Shown here: positions 17,750 through 32,220 of the stretch, piece by piece
How the letters are laid out: the number at the start of each line of letters is the position of its first letter
How positions within the stretch are numbered: the first letter of the stretch is position 1
Source of the DNA: Metallosphaera hakonensis JCM 8857 = DSM 7519
GTDB lineage: Archaea > Thermoproteota > Thermoprotei_A > Sulfolobales > Sulfolobaceae
DNA: 64,000 nt
Assembly: GCF_003201675.2 (NCBI RefSeq)
Contig: NZ_CP029287.2
Coordinates: forward strand, 62,001-126,000
Direction: 5' to 3'
The notes under the pieces: generated by a model
What the model was told of the DNA's origin: nothing
The model's input: the letters and a program-made list of their open reading frames with translations, nothing else
Database searches by the model: none
Translations under genes and position numbers: made by a program

Positions 17750-18106
17750 TCACTTCTTGACCTTAATTAGATAGCTGAAGAGTAGGGCACTCAATAATGA
17801 TATTATGCTATAAATTAATGGATAAAGGAAGATTACTAACAATGAATTGATTCCAATTAGCTGTCCAATTATTTCTCCAATCTTATTAACGTCATTAATG
17901 GGATAGATCGCATAGAGAGAAAGCGAGGACAAGAGTCCTATTAGGAAGCCTCCCATCACCGAATATTTTCTGCTCAATAGTCCTAGGGGAACTCCTACAA
18001 TTATCGCCGTAAATGGATATGATACAAATATCTGCATGGAGTACGCCAATACTATGGACGAGATGATAGCAATATTGTAAATAACGTTTGACCTTGTCAT
18101 TATCAC
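17750..18106 (-). CDS. Small polytopic membrane protein
   Basis: A 118-residue protein with four hydrophobic helices and almost no polar loops; the C terminus is SYLIKVKK. It overlaps the end of the upstream acylase gene by 4 bases and so is co-translated with it on the minus strand. No family is recognised. It may be a helper or transport partner for the secreted hydrolase. Confidence 0.65.
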   Translation of the reverse strand: MIMTRSNVIYNIAIISSIVLAYSMQIFVSYPFTAIIVGVPLGLLSRKYSVMGGFLIGLLSSLSLYAIYPINDVNKIGEIIGQLIGINSLLVIFLYPLIYSIISLLSALLFSYLIKVKK

Positions 18107-20604
18107 GCCTCCAACAAAATTCTCGCCGATATATTGAAATTATAGCCAGAATAGGATATATATTTAAAGGATAGCCACAAGGGTAACTGATCCTCCCTAA
18201 GTTCACTAACTAAGCTCTCGGAAGGCCCACCTGGAAATATCCCGTAGAATTGTGAGGAATATGGGGAGGCTATGAACCTAAGAGAAGAACCTACGGTCAC
18301 ATAAGGTAAGGGAACGGTGGGGATGTATGGGGTGGAACCCACTGCAAGTGTATGCGGGTCGCCGAATATGGGAATAGGACCCACAGAAAGTGCCTTCAAT
18401 CCCAATGGATTGTAAATCTCCAAGAGGTGTACCTTCCCCCATTGCCATTCACTTACATTGCTTCCCAAGTTTAGTTGTAGTAGTGAGATCGCTTTGGCTA
18501 ATGATTGTTCAACTAAGCCAGAGAAATTCCCATTAACCCAAGGGGACGTAGGGTCGTGTTGTGCAATATAGATGAGATCTGGGACAATGTAAGGTATACT
18601 GGCTATATCCAATATGCCTAACCCAGTGTTATTTACTATCTTCGCAATGCTGTTATTCACCATTTCAGCAACTATATACGTGTATATTGTTGGTGCTACC
18701 TCATTTTCATAAAATGTAAAATTCCATCCCCTTAGATACTTTAATGCGGTTTCCTGAGCACTGTTGTTCACGTTACTACCTATGGCCTTCAATATGAGGG
18801 GAGTAAGTAAGGATGCCCAATAATCTGTCACGTTAGACTGTAGCTTCATCATATCGCTAACGTTGACTTTTCCTTCATATTCCAGGTAGTGATAGATGTC
18901 TTCGGCTCTACCGCCGGAGCTCCAGTATCCACCAATAAATGGAAATGGGTAATTTACCCAGACGGTGGGCTGATTCGGAGCAAACGCGAAACCTCTCTCA
19001 GGATCAATCGTCTGCGGTAAGTATTTGAAGGGTATGTAACCAACCGGTTCGTATCTAGAAATAGTGCCGTTCAAGGGCGTTCTTGCACCCACAACTGACA
19101 CGTTTCTGCCGTCTGGCAACGTCTCATTTATGAGCGGATAAAGCCCGGCTACAATTATACCGGCGTGATGTTTGCTAACTATTGCAAGGTTCTGCGGAGG
19201 AACGACCCAATATCTCGCTGCGTTAATTAGATTGCTAAATGACGTTGAGTTGTCCAAAAGAAATATGGAAACAACCGTGAGTATGGGTTCTTTCCAAGCT
19301 GACCAATAGATACTTATTCCGTAATTCTTGTATTTTGCCACAAGTGGACCATTATTAGTGTAGTAAACAGTATATGTTCTGCCCATCAACGTGTAATTGT
19401 ACTCAGTCATTTGATGCCATTTACCGTTGTAGTAGTATTGAGTCCCATTAATCATCTCGATATAGGCATTTGAAGAGCTCCCTTCAGGAGTAGTTAATCC
19501 CCACGCAGTGTAGGAAGTGTGCCCTATGAGAACCCCTGGTATGCCAACCAGAGACCAACCTGTTACGTTCATCCCTGAGTCCACAAGTTGTAGTGGAATC
19601 CAAACTGAGGGGGAGAATAAAGGTAAATGCGGGTCGTTAGCCAGGATCGGACCTTGGGTGGAGAAATTAGAGGTCACGATCCATGAGTTGCTAGCAAATT
19701 TTGGAAAAGGGATGAAAGGGTCTGAAACGTTCAGTATGGCATACTTCATTAGAGGTACAAGCGCCTTTAGCTCGTCCTTAGTTACCCCTGTAGCCCAGGA
19801 TTTGTACCAATTTAGTGACCATAGATACTGAGGCGAGATATCCTGATCTGTCAAATTGTAACCGTTGACTGTACCATCTCCTGGTACCACTGTAAGATTT
19901 CCGTTCACGAAATGAGGATAGTACGGGTTGATTTCGTTAACTTCCGTGTAGTTAAAATAGGTATAAAGTAAGGCTGACTCAAGTTCGTCATTAAATCCGG
20001 AGGTCAAACTCCAGGCCATGTACTCTCCAAAAGCTAACGAGTATCTTGGAGACCAGGAATAGGGCCTAACGTTCAACAACTTAAACTCCAAGGGCAAATC
20101 TCTGTAGTTTAAACTGTTAATGTAATCGTTAACCCCTTGGGAAAATGCCTCTAGATAAGAGTAAATAGTTGGATAATTTTGCTTTAAGTATTGTGCACTC
20201 ATTATGGCGTTTTGTGGTATTCCTATTAAGTGCATGGCAACGTCAGAGGATAACGCCTTGGCCCCAACCCAAGAGCTCAAGTTTCCCATGGACAAGAGGC
20301 CGAACAATTCCAATTGGAATAACCTCTGACTAGCCTCGTAATATCCTTCAGCGAGGAAAAGGTCATGGAGGTTACTGGCATAAATATGCGCCACACCGTT
20401 ACTATCTACATATATATTTACGTTCCCGGTTAAACCAGGGACGTTAACAACTTGGTTTAGAACTTTCACATTACCGGAGGAGTACCAAACCCCGAGATAA
20501 GGATTCAAAATTGATAGGGACATTGTGAAAGTTGAGATAACTAGTAATAAGATCACTAAAACACCTATTATAACATAATCATAACCCTTCAATCCTCTCC
20601 ACAC
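18103..20604 (-). CDS. Penicillin acylase family (peptidase S45) hydrolase, membrane-anchored
   Basis: An 833-residue Ntn-hydrolase precursor. Residues 9-30 form an uncleaved N-terminal membrane anchor, placing the enzyme outside the cell. The alpha chain is followed by the processing site and nucleophile Ser305 in FASNSWIV, the S-N-x-W signature of S45 enzymes, then NDPHL as in the family. Autocatalytic cleavage before Ser305 would give two chains. Family members split amides or acyl-homoserine lactones; here the substrate is unknown. The many N-x-S/T sites fit a glycosylated surface protein. The start is GTG at 20604. Confidence 0.9.
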   Translation of the reverse strand: MWRGLKGYDYVIIGVLVILLLVISTFTMSLSILNPYLGVWYSSGNVKVLNQVVNVPGLTGNVNIYVDSNGVAHIYASNLHDLFLAEGYYEASQRLFQLELFGLLSMGNLSSWVGAKALSSDVAMHLIGIPQNAIMSAQYLKQNYPTIYSYLEAFSQGVNDYINSLNYRDLPLEFKLLNVRPYSWSPRYSLAFGEYMAWSLTSGFNDELESALLYTYFNYTEVNEINPYYPHFVNGNLTVVPGDGTVNGYNLTDQDISPQYLWSLNWYKSWATGVTKDELKALVPLMKYAILNVSDPFIPFPKFASNSWIVTSNFSTQGPILANDPHLPLFSPSVWIPLQLVDSGMNVTGWSLVGIPGVLIGHTSYTAWGLTTPEGSSSNAYIEMINGTQYYYNGKWHQMTEYNYTLMGRTYTVYYTNNGPLVAKYKNYGISIYWSAWKEPILTVVSIFLLDNSTSFSNLINAARYWVVPPQNLAIVSKHHAGIIVAGLYPLINETLPDGRNVSVVGARTPLNGTISRYEPVGYIPFKYLPQTIDPERGFAFAPNQPTVWVNYPFPFIGGYWSSGGRAEDIYHYLEYEGKVNVSDMMKLQSNVTDYWASLLTPLILKAIGSNVNNSAQETALKYLRGWNFTFYENEVAPTIYTYIVAEMVNNSIAKIVNNTGLGILDIASIPYIVPDLIYIAQHDPTSPWVNGNFSGLVEQSLAKAISLLQLNLGSNVSEWQWGKVHLLEIYNPLGLKALSVGPIPIFGDPHTLAVGSTPYIPTVPLPYVTVGSSLRFIASPYSSQFYGIFPGGPSESLVSELREDQLPLWLSFKYISYSGYNFNISARILLEA

Positions 20605-21326
20605 CTCTTATCTTTTTCCTGCTCATCATGAATTCTCAATGACAGATCATTTTAACGATAATTAATGTTTACATATATACTTTATTTATAATTATATATC
20701 GCATTGAGATTAACTTCTAGAAGTTGTTCTCTTTTTACAGTATAATGTTTAAGGGGAACTCAATCTCAAAAAGGATGCTAACTTCAATTTAAGGAAAAGC
20801 TCTCAATGAGGCCTCCGTTTACGAGAATGAAGGAGTTGTTTAGGCGAGATATATAACTAGGTGTTATGTTCCCTCGATAGTGAATCATTTTGTCTCGATG
20901 ATCATTGATGGAATGAGGGTAATCGAGACCTCTCGTTTGGGTAAGAGATCGTATTACCGACCTCCATCTGCGAGACTAAGATGGGAAACTAAGGTAGGAA
21001 GCAGAATTTTGATTTGAAACGAATCCCTTGAATTTCCAGGACCAATGTCTCTACCAGGGGAATGTGGGTAAAGAGAAAGGGGCTTTTCACCTGGGTGAAC
21101 CTCGCTAATCATCACTTGATTATTTTGGTTTACCCATGAGTAATTCCCACGTTTCGTATGGTAGATCAGTATCCTTTGAAAGTTATACGAGGGTATCTTG
21201 TTAACGCTAATGTTAGAGCCATGTCAAAGTCATAAGAACACGTTAATGCCGGAATCCGTTTATTGCGAGACCGGAAACGTCCGTATTACTCTCCCAAGCG
21301 GTATTTAAGGAAATCGCGTCAAGAAA
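20605..21326. other. Intergenic region between divergent units
   Basis: About 720 bases without a convincing gene. The left 120 bases are A/T-rich and should hold the promoter of the acylase gene. The right end holds TATTTAAGG (21302-21310), 23-29 bases before the two candidate ATG codons of the next gene (21327 and 21333). The middle has scattered GAGA/CTCTC motifs and a segment like a decayed tnpB tail (GGGTGAACCTCGC), too weak to call. Confidence 0.45.
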
Positions 21327-21827
21327 ATGTTCATGGTCCAGGATAACGAAGTGTACCATGCGATTCAACAACTTTACGACGGTAAGCCGGTCGCCATTTC
21401 TAGGCTTAAGAGGAAGTTTCATGGGGATCCAGGATTGGAGGAATCCCTTCAGAGGCTCGAAGCCCAGGGCAAGATTAGATCTGTATCCATTAAGGGAGGA
21501 AAGGGATTTGAACTATCTTCAGACAAGCTTGACCTGGTCCTTCTCGAGATCGTAAACTTGAGGGATGAGGTCAAGAAGTTGAGGGAATCGCTTCAGGAGA
21601 AATCCAAGATAAGGTTAGACCACTTTGACGAGGTCTACAACAGGGTTAGAGACAACTTGGGTTACGCTCACCTGCAGGTAATTAGGGTGGAGATGGGCTT
21701 GGGAAAGGAGGAGTTCTACTCGTCCCTCAGGAGCCACATTGAGGCGAACTACGACCTCATCGCTGGGGGAGAAGAGGGGTTCGTCAGGAAGGGCTCCGTT
21801 TACGGCATAGTTAAGAAGAAGAGGTAG
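21327..21827 (+). CDS. Small putative winged-helix/coiled-coil protein, first gene of AAA-kinase operon
   Basis: A 166-residue soluble protein. Residues 5-60 form a helical unit ending in a strand pair (ISRLKRKFHGDPGLEESLQRLEAQGKIRSVSIKGGKGFEL), the outline of a winged helix. A short coiled coil follows (about 72-95), and residues 100-166 form a second helix-turn-helix-like unit ending in GFVRKGSVYGIVKKKR. It probably binds DNA or acts as an adaptor. Only 5 bases separate it from the AAA+ gene, so they share a transcript. No named family is recognised. Confidence 0.7.
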   Translation: MFMVQDNEVYHAIQQLYDGKPVAISRLKRKFHGDPGLEESLQRLEAQGKIRSVSIKGGKGFELSSDKLDLVLLEIVNLRDEVKKLRESLQEKSKIRLDHFDEVYNRVRDNLGYAHLQVIRVEMGLGKEEFYSSLRSHIEANYDLIAGGEEGFVRKGSVYGIVKKKR

Positions 21828-21832
21828 TACAC

Positions 21833-23182
21833 ATGATCTGCAATATACCCAAGGTTACGGTCACAACGTGGAGCGCAAAGAACGTGATCTTAGCCGGTCC
21901 CACTTACAAGAGATATCTAGAGAAGACCCTTGAGGCAGTCAAGAACAAGGACGTGGCCTCAATAATAGGTCAGCCTGGTATGGGTAAGACTACCATACTC
22001 AGGAAGACCCAGGAGGAGATCAAGGGGCTGAGTTTCTTTCTGGACCTAGCCAGTAAGGCGGAGATAGGAGACGAGTTCTGGGAGAAGGTGGACCACTTTA
22101 AGCTTAAGGAGATGGTATTACCGACATTGAGGGGGAAGGGAGGTAAGTTAGGGTATGGGTTCCTGAAGAGAATAACTGGGGTGAAGTTTGAGGATTGGTT
22201 GGTCAAGGTATGCGGGAAATATGACGATCTTCATCTCAGGCTTTACTGCCTGGATTACTCCAGGAACTTCGATGGAATGCTCAGGTTTCTCTCCGATCTA
22301 AAGGAGGTAACCGAGGTGACGCTCCTAATGGACGAGGTCAGGGAATCCCACATACCCGAGATACACAGGCTAATTAACGCAGGGCTTGGGATTCCAATTG
22401 TTATGGCCATTCCCACGGACTCATATAGTAAGGTCACTGACTTGGCCATCAGGAGGAGACTTGATGAGAGCAGAGTTTCCCTGGATACGGCTTTAACTCC
22501 AGAGGACATAAGGGAGATCATAGATGCTTACTGTCACTCCCTTGTGGACGACATTTTCCCCATAATACTGTCCCTATGGAACGGCGGAGAGCTTAACACA
22601 GTTAGTTCCATGTTGCAGTACATAAAGTCGCAGGCCGAGAACTTTGAGAAGGATTGCGGGGATAACCTAGATTGCGTGAGGGAGAGGGTGAGAAGCTTCC
22701 ATTCCCTCAAGAACCCAGATGAGGACTCCAGGGAGATAGAGAAGTTGATTAGGGAAGTTCTAACCTCTGACTCAAAGGAAATGGAAATTAGCTACGTTCA
22801 TTCCAGGGGAAAGAGAGTGGAGGCAAAGGGTAAGAACCTGGTGGTCGGTGTCTTCTTCATTAAGGATGAGAAGGCCTTCGTGGGTTCAGTGAAGTTAATG
22901 AACGACGATAAGGAGGAGGACGAGGAGGTTAACCTATTGTCAGAGGTGAGGGTCGTGGATCATGAGAAGAGGAGTTACGAGGTTGCAGGGAGGTTCGTGC
23001 TAACGAATTCTGTGAAACTCAAGGTTCCGGACACGGTCACCAAAATAACGGTGTCCACTTTGGAGGCCGTGAGAATTCTCCACGGGGACACGGAGATGCT
23101 AAGGGAGATATTGAGATCGGTACACTTCGTCCTGGACACAGGTAACTTGGTGAACGGTGGCGAAAAAGAAATATTGACCTGA
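21833..23182 (+). CDS. AAA+/STAND-like ATPase with C-terminal beta domain
   Basis: A 449-residue P-loop ATPase. Walker A GQPGMGKTT is at 46-54, Walker B LLMDEV at 164-169, and a sensor-like IPIVMAIPTDS at 187-197. Layout and length resemble archaeal Orc1/Cdc6-like or STAND ATPases. Residues 320-440 form a separate, strand-rich region with an acidic loop (MNDDKEEDEEVN), not part of the ATPase core. It lies between a putative DNA-binding protein and a Ser/Thr kinase, which suggests an ATP-dependent switch that feeds or receives phosphorylation. Substrate and trigger are unknown. Confidence 0.8.
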   Translation: MICNIPKVTVTTWSAKNVILAGPTYKRYLEKTLEAVKNKDVASIIGQPGMGKTTILRKTQEEIKGLSFFLDLASKAEIGDEFWEKVDHFKLKEMVLPTLRGKGGKLGYGFLKRITGVKFEDWLVKVCGKYDDLHLRLYCLDYSRNFDGMLRFLSDLKEVTEVTLLMDEVRESHIPEIHRLINAGLGIPIVMAIPTDSYSKVTDLAIRRRLDESRVSLDTALTPEDIREIIDAYCHSLVDDIFPIILSLWNGGELNTVSSMLQYIKSQAENFEKDCGDNLDCVRERVRSFHSLKNPDEDSREIEKLIREVLTSDSKEMEISYVHSRGKRVEAKGKNLVVGVFFIKDEKAFVGSVKLMNDDKEEDEEVNLLSEVRVVDHEKRSYEVAGRFVLTNSVKLKVPDTVTKITVSTLEAVRILHGDTEMLREILRSVHFVLDTGNLVNGGEKEILT

Positions 23183-23197
23183 ACTAGGATAGAGTTA

Positions 23198-24706
23198 ATG
23201 CTCCTCCACAGGGTGAACTGGGACTTCAAGAGAGAAGGAGTGAAAATCAAGGTAAACATTTTGATAACGTTTTACTGGAGGAATCAGTTTATCGAGATCC
23301 CTGTGGACGTTGATGAGATAGAGGTTAAATTCGACGGTGTGACCGCAAACTGCTACCCCACCGGTAGTACGGGAAGTTACGTCTGTAGGGTCCTAACTTC
23401 GCCTGGTTATCACGTCCTCCATGTCTGGGGATCGCGGTATCAGGGATTGTGGTCTCGTGAGGTAACCGAGGGAGATCTAAACCTGGAGTTTGAGCCGGAG
23501 CTAAATGTGGCCCTGAATTTCGTGGGGAAGACCCTTCATGTTTTCGTGAGAGGTTCCCAGGATCTTGACCCCGACATTATCATGGGGAAACTCGATGGAA
23601 CTCTCATAACCCTGAGGAGAGTGGGACGAGGACACTACGTTTCTGAAATTAATAAGGGGGGAGTTGTTGAGGTTGAAGCGTGTTATCGTAACGATTGTCG
23701 GAAAGCCGTGATCACAGCGAATCCCACCCCAAGCTTAAGGGACTGGGATGCAAGATTATGGCTTAACAGGGACCTCTACGGCTATCATGTTGTTGACCTC
23801 CTAGGAGAGGGAGGCTTCAGCTACGTTCTCAAGGCCACCTCTCTAGATAGAGTGTTTGCCTTGAAGATTCCCAAGCTCACCTTCTCCCCCTCTAAGGGTA
23901 TCACTAGGAACGTCTCGGATACCTTGGGAGACCTCTTCAAGGAACAGAGTGCCCTCTTGGAACTCAGTGAACAATCCCCTTTCCTCGTTAAACTTGAGGG
24001 AGTTCATGTGGATAAGGAAACTGTGAGGAGAGCTATGATCGATCCCAACTTTTACCTGGAATATCCTCCAATGATTGTCATGGAGTATATGGAGGGAGGA
24101 CCTGTGACTCGATTGGTGAACGATGACGCGATGTTTTACTCGGATTCGTGGAAGGCGGTAGTGTTCATGATGGTCCAGAGGGTGTCAAGTGGCCTCCTGA
24201 AGGTTCACGAAAGGGGTTACGTTCATTGCGACGTTAAGCCCTCCAACATATTGCTGGATCACAGACCCCCTACAACGGCTATGGAGCTTCTAGGGGAGCT
24301 TAAGTCCAGACATGTTAACCCTAAGTTGGCAGATCTGGGATCTGCAGTAAAGAACGGGAGTACCCCACCTGGGGCGACTTTGGAATATGCATCCATAGAA
24401 CAGGTCAACTCCCTATTTTCGAGGGGAGTGAATTGGACCGACGATATTTACTCCCTGGGGGCCACCCTGTTCTACTTGCTAACAAGGAAGTACCTGAACG
24501 AGCCCATCTTGGCCGACATGGAGAAGGCGTTTAGCACGGGGAAGAAATTGAACAATTCCTTATATCGAAAGAGAGATTTCACCCCTCTTCTCAACTCCGG
24601 CCTGGACTCCAAGGTAACCTCATTCATAAGGGAAATGACCTCCGAGAGAGCGGAGGATAGGCCTAGCGCTGTGAAAGTCTTCAATTTCTTTAGCTCCTTA
24701 CTCTAA
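23198..24706 (+). CDS. Soluble Ser/Thr protein kinase with N-terminal beta-sandwich domains
   Basis: A 502-residue Hanks-type kinase. The Gly-rich loop GEGGFS is at 203-208, catalytic Lys223 in ALKIP, the acidic hinge MEYMEGG near 295-301, catalytic loop HCDVKPSN at 343-350 (Asp345) and Mg-binding DLG at 379-381 in place of DFG. TDDIYSLGATLFYLLT is the F-helix. Residues 15-180 hold two strand-rich modules, probably Ig-like, absent from most archaeal kinases. There is no membrane segment. HCD instead of HRD implies that activation may not need phosphorylation of an activation loop. It is the third gene of the AAA-kinase operon. Confidence 0.9.
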   Translation: MLLHRVNWDFKREGVKIKVNILITFYWRNQFIEIPVDVDEIEVKFDGVTANCYPTGSTGSYVCRVLTSPGYHVLHVWGSRYQGLWSREVTEGDLNLEFEPELNVALNFVGKTLHVFVRGSQDLDPDIIMGKLDGTLITLRRVGRGHYVSEINKGGVVEVEACYRNDCRKAVITANPTPSLRDWDARLWLNRDLYGYHVVDLLGEGGFSYVLKATSLDRVFALKIPKLTFSPSKGITRNVSDTLGDLFKEQSALLELSEQSPFLVKLEGVHVDKETVRRAMIDPNFYLEYPPMIVMEYMEGGPVTRLVNDDAMFYSDSWKAVVFMMVQRVSSGLLKVHERGYVHCDVKPSNILLDHRPPTTAMELLGELKSRHVNPKLADLGSAVKNGSTPPGATLEYASIEQVNSLFSRGVNWTDDIYSLGATLFYLLTRKYLNEPILADMEKAFSTGKKLNNSLYRKRDFTPLLNSGLDSKVTSFIREMTSERAEDRPSAVKVFNFFSSLL

Positions 24707-28457: not shown

Positions 28458-29756
28458 ATGAGCTCACCTCTTAGTTGGAATGATGATCAGATAAAGGCCT
28501 TTAAGGAGCTTCATCATAATTTCGAACAAGTTAAGATCTCCATCACGAAACTTCTCGGTCAGAAGGGACCGCTAACGGGTTCGGAGAGGGAGCTGGATAG
28601 ATTGTTGAGCGAGATCAATTCCATCAGGGTAAAGTACATACAATTCTCCGCAGATCCTCTCCTCAGGATATTCGTCCCCAAGAGGGTGAGACTGACCACC
28701 GAGTTTGTCTCTAAAACGTTACGACAACTGAAGGACTATGAGAGAGCCATGAAGGAAGAGATAGAATTACTGGATTGGTTGGAAAAGGAGTCACAGAAGA
28801 TGACCGGGGTAAAGGATGCCTTGTCCCTCAGTTATTGGGCGGTACTCATGGTTGAGACGGGGCAGGTCTTCAGGTTTAAGGATAGAGGAAAACAGGAGGG
28901 GTACTTAAGGAGCACAGTGAATGCCTTGGAACCCGTCGTAGCCTCAGGAAGGTCAGATTCCACGATTCCTAACCTTCCAGCAGACGTAGTTCGAGGGATA
29001 ACCTTATACGTCCTCAGTGACGCATACGCCGACTTAGGTTTGGTGAGGTACTTGCAGAAGGACAGGACAGGCGCGTTGGAGATGTACAAGAGGGTAATAC
29101 CCCTCAGCGTAGAGTTCGTTAGATTGCGGGAATCCTCCCCTATACTAAAGAAGCTGTGGGACATCATGATAGAATACGGTCTTCCACCCGACTCAAGGGC
29201 CCTCATAGGTATGAAGGAGTGTGAGGCCATAGATGCCGGGGAAAACGAGGATTACGACTTGGTTGTGATGAGTTTGATCTCAGCAATTACTAGACACGAT
29301 GAGAAGCATGTGGCAGACCTGTTGTGGAGAGGTGCAGATCCCAACACCTTGATCACGGTGGACAAGAACGTCCTAATGCTAGCCGTGGACTCAGGTTCAT
29401 CCGACTTAGTGAAGTTGTTGCTCGATAAAGGGGCGAACCCTCACCTCAAGGTGCCAATGAATTACGACGCTGTGGAATATGCGAGGTTGAGGAACAGGCA
29501 CGACATGGCTAACCTCATGGAGAGGTACTCCGTGAGCAAGGGTGTTGCTCAGAGCCCTGGCGTCGCGATACAGACTGAGCCCAGCTTAGGGATGCAGGTC
29601 ATCTGTCCCAACTGTGGGACGGCTCTCCAGTATAGTAGGTTCTGCCCTAAGTGCGGGACCCTCCTGGATGACTATAAGCCCTGCCCCTCTTGTAGACATT
29701 TGGTTCCTAAGGCCAGTAGGTTCTGTGGCTTCTGCGGGAAACCCCTCCCGCCCTGA
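28458..29756 (+). CDS. Ankyrin-repeat protein with helical N-terminal half and C-terminal double zinc ribbon
   Basis: A 432-residue soluble protein. Residues 1-250 are helical with TPR-like features (ALSLSYWAVLM, then YADLGLVRYLQKDRTGALEMY). Two ankyrin repeats occupy about 265-350 (HVADLLWRGADPNTL, then DLVKLLLDKGANPHLK). The C terminus has four CxxC knuckles forming a double zinc ribbon (CPNCG, CPKCG, CPSCR, CGFCG; about 377-430). All three modules bind proteins or RNA, so it is likely an adaptor. It lies 3.7 kb from the AAA-kinase operon on the same strand, and a functional link is conceivable but unproved. Confidence 0.8.
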   Translation: MSSPLSWNDDQIKAFKELHHNFEQVKISITKLLGQKGPLTGSERELDRLLSEINSIRVKYIQFSADPLLRIFVPKRVRLTTEFVSKTLRQLKDYERAMKEEIELLDWLEKESQKMTGVKDALSLSYWAVLMVETGQVFRFKDRGKQEGYLRSTVNALEPVVASGRSDSTIPNLPADVVRGITLYVLSDAYADLGLVRYLQKDRTGALEMYKRVIPLSVEFVRLRESSPILKKLWDIMIEYGLPPDSRALIGMKECEAIDAGENEDYDLVVMSLISAITRHDEKHVADLLWRGADPNTLITVDKNVLMLAVDSGSSDLVKLLLDKGANPHLKVPMNYDAVEYARLRNRHDMANLMERYSVSKGVAQSPGVAIQTEPSLGMQVICPNCGTALQYSRFCPKCGTLLDDYKPCPSCRHLVPKASRFCGFCGKPLPP

Positions 29757-30962: not shown

Positions 30963-32220
30963 GGGCGGCTCAGGAGTCCATTGCGAATTGTATTTTCTAG
31001 CTCTGAATTAGGCTTATCCAATGTACAAATTATTGGGTATATTTCGGATAAAGTGAGAGGAATGAAGAAGACTGTAATATTATTACAGTGATGAGAAAAT
31101 AGGCCGATAGGTTGTAGTAGAGCGCTATGGCCCGCGCGAGCTGTAGTATCCTCCAGGGAGAGTGAAACGACCCGAACCTCCTCCTCTCCAGGAGGGAGTT
31201 GAAGGACTCGACCAGGTTGTTGGACTTAAGCCACTTCCAGAGCTTCTTGTCGGCGATGAGGTAGCTTAGAAGAGTCGGGTTGGTCTCGGGCTTAATCTTG
31301 CCGAGCTCGGCTGACGAGGTGATCGCGTCCAGGGCCTCCCTTTCCTCCTTGGTCGCGCGACGCTTGAGGTGGACCAGGCAGCCCTGCCTCCCCACGTGAA
31401 GTTCAGCTAGGGAGATCGCCCTGTCCAAGGCCTTGATCCCGTCAGCCACCACCAGGACGAAGCTGGTCTTCTTCCAGACCCTGACCAGGAGACTCCAATA
31501 GGCCATGGCGTCCTCAGCCTCGCTTATGATGACCTCGAGGACCGCCCTCTTTCCCTCCCGTGTCACGCCCATAGCCACGAGGAGGACCGCCTTTCGTCCC
31601 TTGAGCTTCACGTACTTCCCGTCAACTATAACGTACTTGAAGTCGTTGCCCGTTTCAATCTCAGGCATCCAGAGCTTGGCATTCAACTTACCTCCCTTCA
31701 CTGAGTAGACCAACATTAGGGACGCGAAGACCTTCCTCTCCTCCCTTAACAGAGTCTCCTCGACCTGGGTCCTCACCCTCCCCTCACCGTAAAGCACGGG
31801 CAGCTTCACCGATATCCACTCCAACTCGTACCTCACCTCCCTCCCCACCATCACGATCTTGAACCCCTTCAGGAACCTGTAGCTCGCGTAACCCTTCCTC
31901 TTGACCTCCTTACCTCTCTGGTAGTTGGGACTAATCCTCTCAGCTTCCTCCAAGGCCATCCTCTCGATCTCCTGGACCGGTTTGTTTAATAAGGCGTCAT
32001 CGGGTAATATCTTGGGGACGAGCGTGAGGGATATCTTCCCAGGTCCCTCTACGAGCTCCATAATCCGGACCCCGTAGAGGGTTACCTCGTTCACAGTTGA
32101 TAGTTCCATGATATTACCTCATGCTCGTCCCCTATTAGTGTTACCGAAAATGTAGAATCAATTTCTACTATCTAATTCTATAGAAATAAATTGAAATCGC
32201 AATGGACTCCTGAGCCGCCC
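30963..32220 (-). mobile_element. IS256-family insertion sequence (1258 bp)
   Basis: The inverted ends are GGGCGGCTCAGGAGTCCATT and its exact complement at 32201-32220, extending about four more bases inward (TTGCGA). CAAGTCTA is duplicated at 30955-30962 and 32221-32228. The length is close to the ISC1257-type elements of Sulfolobus, but the name would need a database match. A perfect duplication and an intact transposase point to recent insertion. Confidence 0.92.
31030..32109 (-). CDS. IS256-family (mutator-type) transposase
   Basis: A 359-residue DDE transposase. The catalytic residues can be read as Asp in KYVIVDGKYVK, Asp in VLVVADGIKAL and Glu in SNNLVESFNSLLERR, with the C-LVHLKRR segment that is conserved in mutator-type enzymes between the second Asp and the Glu. 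The gene is intact and fills the IS between its ends. It could also act on the 162-bp MITEs, whose ends and 8-bp duplication match this family. Confidence 0.92.
   Translation of the reverse strand: MELSTVNEVTLYGVRIMELVEGPGKISLTLVPKILPDDALLNKPVQEIERMALEEAERISPNYQRGKEVKRKGYASYRFLKGFKIVMVGREVRYELEWISVKLPVLYGEGRVRTQVEETLLREERKVFASLMLVYSVKGGKLNAKLWMPEIETGNDFKYVIVDGKYVKLKGRKAVLLVAMGVTREGKRAVLEVIISEAEDAMAYWSLLVRVWKKTSFVLVVADGIKALDRAISLAELHVGRQGCLVHLKRRATKEEREALDAITSSAELGKIKPETNPTLLSYLIADKKLWKWLKSNNLVESFNSLLERRRFGSFHSPWRILQLARAIALYYNLSAYFLITVIILQSSSFLSLYPKYTQ

What the first reader, a model, noticed from the sequence alone, without database searches (positions are those of the whole stretch)
21327..24706. 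Operon of putative DNA-binding protein, AAA+/STAND-like ATPase and beta-domain Ser/Thr kinase
Seen: three genes with 5- and 15-base gaps, a leaderless promoter, a kinase with HCD and DLG variants and two N-terminal beta modules. Known: STAND ATPases with kinases or effectors occur in signalling and antiviral modules. Inference: an ATP-dependent sensor that signals through protein phosphorylation, perhaps to stress or phage.
Basis: partly seen in the sequence, partly recalled or inferred. Interest (0 to 1): 0.55.

Follow-up and report, generated by a model that had tools for sequence, protein, structure and literature searches.

The report
Nuclease-dead twin of antiviral gene pair
In this heat-loving archaeon the first two genes are a DNA-binding protein and an ATP-burning protein that travel together throughout their family; they closely resemble a suspected virus-defence pair, but this copy has lost the cutting site and only in a few species has a protein kinase been added behind it.

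Summary
The three genes, gaps, kinase motifs and leaderless promoter are real. The three-gene unit is not: the winged-helix gene and ATPase gene form a fixed pair (42 of 42 intact places examined), but the kinase follows it in only 3 of 31 family genomes (one Metallosphaera clade).

The ATPase carries a C-terminal PD-(D/E)XK nuclease-like domain. The family splits in two. Type B (15 of 31 genomes, patchy, one clear transfer between genera, decayed remnants) keeps D…(D/E)-x-K in 15 of 15 copies. Type A (27 of 31 genomes, one copy each, mostly following taxonomy; includes the window) keeps it in 0 of 27, although its ATPase motifs are invariant. Two Acidianus viruses, one hot-spring viral contig and plasmid pDL10 carry the C-terminal half of the winged-helix protein alone; all four match type B best.

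A 2024 paper (PMC11065993) already proposed this wHTH/ATPase-nuclease pair as an untested antiviral system, with the viral copies as antagonists. What I did not find in print is that the near-universal copy, the one in the window, is nuclease-dead. Best reading: an ATP-dependent DNA-binding regulator sharing ancestry with a defence module. The kinase's role is unproven.

The parts
21302..21308 (+). TATA-box-like TATTTAA of a probable leaderless promoter
   Evidence: 31 bases before the ATG at 21333 in 4 of 4 Metallosphaera genomes examined
21333..21827 (+). gene 1, winged-helix protein (ORF from 21327; likely start 21333)
   Evidence: start from promoter spacing and alignment A2; winged-helix N-terminal half
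21615..21824 (+). C-terminal winged-helix-like domain of gene 1, the part that viruses and plasmid pDL10 carry alone
   Evidence: model of modest confidence with helix-helix-hairpin
21833..23182 (+). gene 2, AAA+/STAND-like ATPase with C-terminal nuclease-like domain
21968..21991 (+). Walker A, GQPGMGKT
   Evidence: key G, K, T residues invariant in 37 of 37; 5 more copies agree
22331..22336 (+). DE of the Walker B-like motif (D167 E168)
   Evidence: 37 of 37, 5 more
22694..23080 (+). decayed PD-(D/E)XK nuclease-like domain
   Evidence: published PD-DExK assignment for the homolog SiRe_2373 (PMC11065993)
22847..22849 (+). G339, where type B copies have the catalytic D
22886..22894 (+). S352-V-K354, where type B copies have (D/E)-x-K
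23198..24706 (+). gene 3, eukaryotic-like Ser/Thr protein kinase, a lineage-specific neighbour
23237..23731 (+). two related N-terminal modules of the kinase
   Evidence: hhalign of residues 14-96 against 97-178

Best explanation
Genes 1 and 2 are the type A member of a Sulfolobaceae family of two-gene modules: a coiled-coil winged-helix DNA-binding protein and an AAA+/STAND-like ATPase with a C-terminal PD-(D/E)XK domain. In type B modules the nuclease site is intact and the module probably acts as an antiviral or abortive-infection device: gene 1 holds the ATPase on DNA or in check, invasion releases it, and the nuclease cuts; viruses and a plasmid carry the C-terminal domain of gene 1 (most with a stretch of its coil) alone, which would occupy the ATPase or mix into the gene-1 dimer and keep it silent. 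In type A, the window copy, cutting has been lost while ATP binding and the gene-1 partner are kept, so it most likely works as an ATP-switched DNA-binding regulator serving the host cell itself. In one Metallosphaera clade a kinase gene has come to lie behind it, perhaps under the same promoter. Shown here: gene pairing, motif loss in A, retention in B, patchy B and near-universal A, viral copies of B type. Inferred: ATP-dependent switching, DNA binding, defence by B, host role of A, co-transcription of the kinase.
For: Pair intact in 37 of 37 loci with gap -26 to +8 and in 5 further loci. Motif D..(D/E)xK: 15 of 15 B, 0 of 27 A. In the 23 A rows of A1, position 352 has 9 residue types (97th percentile of variability in the domain) while H323, G326, K327, R328, E303 and R307 are invariant; key Walker A, DE and RR residues are invariant in 37 of 37. 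A forms one clade (100/99) that mostly follows taxonomy; B falls in several clades. B of G002 and G023 are 83% identical while A of the same two genomes are 55%, a sign of transfer. B-like remnants with stops or frame breaks in G026 and G014. MGE-borne C-terminal domain in ATV2, ARV3, an IMG/VR contig and pDL10, each closest to B copies among hosts. DUF234 profile scores 30.2 against a best of 21.9 in 149 decoys with the catalytic positions in register. Published proposal for the family: PMC11065993 (section 10 and passages read).
Against: I know of no experiment on any member. The ATPase structure model failed (pLDDT 37.6), so the fold rests on motifs, one profile match and the paper's statement. 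With other PD-(D/E)XK profiles (Hjc, NERD, PF07788) the domain did not beat the best decoy. PADLOC hits near B are not clearly commoner than near A; both lists are truncated. G001's A copy keeps D..D with R in place of K, so decay is not total. The viral domains could be ordinary DNA-binding proteins. A and B separated early and the root is not fixed, so 'defence first, domestication later' is inferred from motif retention only.
Confidence: 0.55

Rival explanations
1. The type A pair is itself an active antiviral abortive-infection system, as the 2024 paper proposes for the family as a whole, working through ATPase-driven toxicity or a nuclease using other residues.
For: Family-level proposal in PMC11065993. 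Gene 1 and ATPase remain coupled in all A loci. E303 and R307 remain invariant and K354 is kept in 16 of 23 A rows.
Against: 0 of 27 A copies keep the catalytic triplet. A is near-universal, single copy and mostly vertical, unlike typical defence genes; 4 of 4 MGE-borne copies are closest to B.
Confidence: 0.17
2. Type A is a guard for type B: the dead copy forms mixed rings with, or competes with, the active copy and prevents self-cutting.
For: 13 of 15 B-bearing genomes also carry A (tallied); shared invariant ATPase motifs.
Against: G004 (91% complete) and G025 (71% complete) have B without A, and 14 genomes have A without intact B. A and B are only about 30% identical.
Confidence: 0.08
3. 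One reading: a three-gene ATP-dependent sensor that signals by phosphorylation through the kinase.
For: Kinase adjacent, same strand, 13-29 base gaps in G000, G007 and G008 (coordinates); catalytic motifs complete.
Against: Adjacent in 3 of 31 genomes; no close ortholog by best hit in same-genus G006 and G009; elsewhere in G010.
Confidence: 0.1
4. The pair is an ordinary transcription regulator with its ATPase, and the PD-(D/E)XK likeness of the C-terminal domain is coincidental.
For: No Pfam nuclease match above threshold; several nuclease profiles do not beat decoys.
Against: D..(D/E)xK in 15 of 15 B copies, DUF234 above all 149 decoys in register, and independent PD-DExK assignment of SiRe_2373 in PMC11065993.
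Confidence: 0.1

Closest known systems
SiRe_2374/SiRe_2373-type pair with viral ADG.51 (arCOG03737), Bhoobalan-Chitty et al. 2024, PMC11065993
   Same: wHTH gene in an operon with an AAA ATPase that has a C-terminal PD-DExK domain; standalone homologs in ARV3 and ATV2.
   Different: The window copy lacks the nuclease triplet. In the parts read, the paper does not separate active and dead copies. It says viral proteins hold the N-terminal wHTH; my alignments place them on the C-terminal one.
Archaeal ATPase_2/DUF234 proteins (PF01637 named from recall; PF03008 tested)
   Same: ATPase followed by a PD-(D/E)XK-like domain; profile alignment in register, and end to end when the alignment threshold is lowered.
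   Different: No Pfam match to either family at E up to 1; always paired with gene 1.
OLD / PARIS ATPase-nucleases
   Same: Works-like comparison made by PMC11065993: ATPase tied to a nuclease.
   Different: ABC ATPase and TOPRIM nuclease there (PMC12796447, passages read); no TOPRIM match here.
Cran1 (SiRe_0086), PMC12796447
   Same: Precedent in Sulfolobales: a defence-type ATPase-nuclease with an apparently essential cell-cycle role and no detected antiviral activity.
   Different: OLD/TOPRIM family, catalytically active, neighbour is a membrane protein.
MADS (mad6 kinase)
   Same: Kinase scores best with mad6 in PADLOC.
   Different: So do 4 of the 5 other kinases of the genome that were scanned.

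Membership tests
SiRe_2374/2373-type wHTH + ATPase-nuclease pair | wHTH gene directly upstream of the ATPase gene, same strand | tested here: met
   37 of 37 plus 5 of 5
SiRe_2374/2373-type wHTH + ATPase-nuclease pair | gene 1 with two wHTH domains | tested here: inconclusive
   N-terminal: winged-helix regulators by hmmsearch. C-terminal: helix-helix-hairpin in a model of mean pLDDT 60.7
SiRe_2374/2373-type wHTH + ATPase-nuclease pair | intact PD-(D/E)XK active site | tested here: not met
   window G339, S352, K354; 0 of 27 type A, 15 of 15 type B. So the window is a relative of, not a full member of, the active pair
PD-(D/E)XK fold | core with E in helix, D, and (D/E)-x-K in register | tested here: inconclusive
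   DUF234 above 149 decoys; Hjc, NERD, PF07788 not; structure model failed
STAND NTPase | match to a STAND family model above its cut-off | tested here: not met
   nSTAND3 19.2 bits against 27.2; NB-ARC 14.4 against 23.5
Eukaryotic-like protein kinase (gene 3) | Pkinase model and catalytic motifs | tested here: met
   84.2 bits against 31.7; G-loop, HCDVKPSN, DLG
MADS | kinase specifically mad6-like, with the other mad genes | tested here: not met
   mad6 top for 4 of 5 other host kinases scanned; gene 2 only E 0.022 to mad8, over the P-loop
OLD/PARIS | TOPRIM nuclease domain | tested here: not met
   no TOPRIM match in Pfam at E up to 1
Type II toxin-antitoxin | gene 2 toxic alone, neutralised by gene 1 | not testable with these tools
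   needs expression in Saccharolobus or E. coli

The most novel reading that the evidence does not exclude
Sulfolobaceae have domesticated a defence-type wHTH/ATPase-nuclease pair: the near-universal type A copy is a nuclease-dead, ATP-switched DNA-binding machine with a core host function (chromosome, cell cycle or transcription control), wired to a protein kinase in one Metallosphaera clade, while type B copies remain mobile antiviral weapons that viruses and plasmids parry with C-terminal fragments of the partner protein.
Probability: 0.4. Interest if true: 0.72.

Novelty: new variant of a known kind. Interest (0 to 1): 0.5.

Why it matters
If right, the published candidate antiviral pair is really two things, and tests done on the near-universal copy would miss the defence function that should sit in the patchy copy. 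It would also be a second Sulfolobales case, after Cran1, of a defence-type ATPase-nuclease family in core cell biology, and it gives a simple prediction: viral ADG.51-like proteins should act on type B, not type A.

Tried and rejected
MADS membership: rejected after the control. STAND filing: sub-threshold. Search for the ATPase in plasmids and phages: no match. IMG/VR scan with the ATPase profile: one hit, L099, a helicase-like ORF matched over the P-loop region only, rejected. Order-wide search (147 genomes): 102 have a match, but those outside the window's family cover only the P-loop region in the rows listed, not counted as relatives. A hit in G022 at 1942160 (E 3.8e-5) is a coiled-coil repeat protein; no Pfam nuclease match and not an ATPase, rejected as a third copy. 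Structure route: ATPase model unusable and gene 1 model modest, so no fold search was run. Defence-island test by PADLOC on 106 B neighbours and 136 A neighbours: inconclusive. Essential-gene paper PMC6249222: term search of the main text gave no passage. Archaeal immunity survey PMC12988326: passages only, no mention of this pair in them. Pairs left out of alignment A1 for want of a fetched locus at that time (5 of 42) were added for the motif tally but not for the trees.

The statement that I did not find the A/B split in print rests on searches of the open-access library and on the main text of PMC11065993 (section 10 and found passages); its supplements were not readable here.
Full report
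What is there. Three ORFs lie on the + strand at 21327-21827, 21833-23182 and 23198-24706. A TATTTAA element sits 31 bases before the ATG at 21333 in the window and in three other Metallosphaera genomes (4 of 4), which fits a leaderless transcript and moves the likely start of gene 1 to 21333. Genus names here rest on that match.

The unit is two genes, not three. In 31 genomes of the family, gene 2 has relatives in 29 and gene 1 in 29. In 37 loci read in full, gene 1 lies directly upstream of gene 2 on the same strand in 37 of 37, with gaps of -26 to +8 bases; the remaining 5 intact places show both genes side by side too. Neighbours otherwise differ by genus. The kinase ortholog is adjacent only in G000, G007 and G008; in G010 it lies at C10:447093, away from the ATPase at C10:115309; the other genomes give only lower-scoring kinases. 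The three genomes with the kinase form one clade in the ATPase tree (96/93). The kinase looks active by motif, and its PADLOC mad6 match is generic.

Two types of pair. The ATPase tree gives a clade of 23 rows (type A, 100/99) and 14 type B rows in several clades. Tallied: 27 of 31 genomes have one A copy, 15 of 31 have one B copy, 13 have both, 14 A only, 2 B only, 2 neither; G026 is counted among A only and has a B-like remnant besides. The window's own genome has a B pair at C1:1795707-1797514. A mostly follows taxonomy. B does not: G002 and G023, of different genera, share 83% identity in B and 55% in A. Other B comparisons are mixed: higher than A for G009-G015 (65 against 50) and G027-G011 (59 against 51), lower for G000-G007 (58 against 72) and G011-G017 (60 against 75). 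Remnants with stops or frame breaks occur in G026 and G014.

The missing active site. The C-terminal domain of type B reads D..(D/E)-x-K in 15 of 15 copies; type A reads it in 0 of 27 (for 37 copies, for the other 5). In the window the three positions are G339, S352 and K354. Within the 23 A rows of A1, position 352 takes 9 residue types and is more variable than 97% of the domain, while H323, G326, K327 and R328 are invariant, as are E303 and R307 in both types. The key ATPase residues of Walker A, DE and RR are invariant in 37 of 37 and in the 5 added copies. So ATP handling and a basic patch are kept, and the cutting site is lost.

Is it really PD-(D/E)XK? Against 149 decoy profiles from neighbouring genes, the DUF234 profile gives 30.2 with the whole-family C-terminal profile (best decoy 21.9) and 26.9 with the type B profile (best decoy 23.4), with E, D and (D/E)-x-K in register. 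With the type A rows alone DUF234 gives only 21.1. Hjc aligns in register with the type B profile but scores 21.6, below the top decoy; NERD (13.2) and PF07788 (18.2) also fall short. Known PD-(D/E)XK profiles compared with each other gave 23-77% (4 comparisons). Pfam NERD matched two of the 10 B copies scanned, at E 0.03 and 0.068. The structure prediction failed. The paper below assigns PD-DExK to the homolog SiRe_2373.

Viral and plasmid copies. The C-terminal half of gene 1 occurs alone in Acidianus two-tailed virus 2 and Acidianus rod-shaped virus 3 (the two proteins are 91% identical over the shared part, although the viruses belong to different families), in one IMG/VR contig and in plasmid pDL10. 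Best host matches are type B in 4 of 4: 76% and 73% to the G028 copy (ATV2, ARV3), 75% to the G011 copy (IMG/VR contig), 58% to the G017 copy (pDL10). For pDL10 the margin over the best listed A copy (51%) is small. The PHROGs family phrog_38850 covers this domain. The tree of this 90-residue region is weakly supported in places and warns of long branches.

What is already known. Bhoobalan-Chitty et al. 2024 (PMC11065993; abstract, section 10 and found passages read) named the ARV3/ATV2 gene ADG.51, linked it to SiRe_2374/SiRe_2373, called the latter an AAA ATPase with a PD-DExK nuclease domain, and suggested an abortive-infection system resembling OLD and PARIS; the parts read describe no experiment on this pair. 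They describe the viral proteins as holding the N-terminal wHTH; tblastn here matches residues 60-164 and 100-164 of the 166-residue window protein. Only that paper was found for these identifiers. Yang et al. 2025 (PMC12796447; abstract, section 11 and passages read) report that an OLD-family ATPase-nuclease of Saccharolobus works in cell-cycle progression and not, in their assays, in virus defence: a different family, but a precedent.

Conclusion. The window holds the nuclease-dead, near-universal member of a family otherwise proposed to be antiviral. I put 0.55 on the account given under best explanation and 0.4 on full domestication to a core host role.

Noticed in passing
G000:C1:1795707-1797514 (L079:8686-10511): The window's own genome carries a type B pair with intact nuclease motif, in the group that the ATV2 and ARV3 copies fall into.
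   Followed up: yes
L122:2827-3201 and L123:2173-2478: ATV2 and ARV3, viruses of different families, share a 91% identical small protein, which points to recent exchange.
   Followed up: partly
L100:9944-10267: A 50 kb IMG/VR contig carries a standalone gene-1 C-terminal domain of a different type B subgroup.
   Followed up: partly
L206:2549-3688: Coiled-coil protein with many near-identical repeats, ending in a stretch that looks like D..E-x-K, in a genome (G022) whose size fits S. acidocaldarius (size recalled).
   Followed up: partly
G000:C1:983023-984459 (L003): A larger kinase paralog (open frame 833 aa) matches gene 3 from residue 37 on, so the N-terminal modules may be shared.
   Followed up: no
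window 28458-29756: ORF that by eye combines ankyrin-like repeats with zinc-ribbon-like ends; no search run.
   Followed up: no
window 18103-20604: Large ORF upstream on the other strand that by eye resembles a penicillin acylase-type hydrolase; no search run.
   Followed up: no
window 31030-32109: ORF that by eye resembles a transposase; no search run.
   Followed up: no
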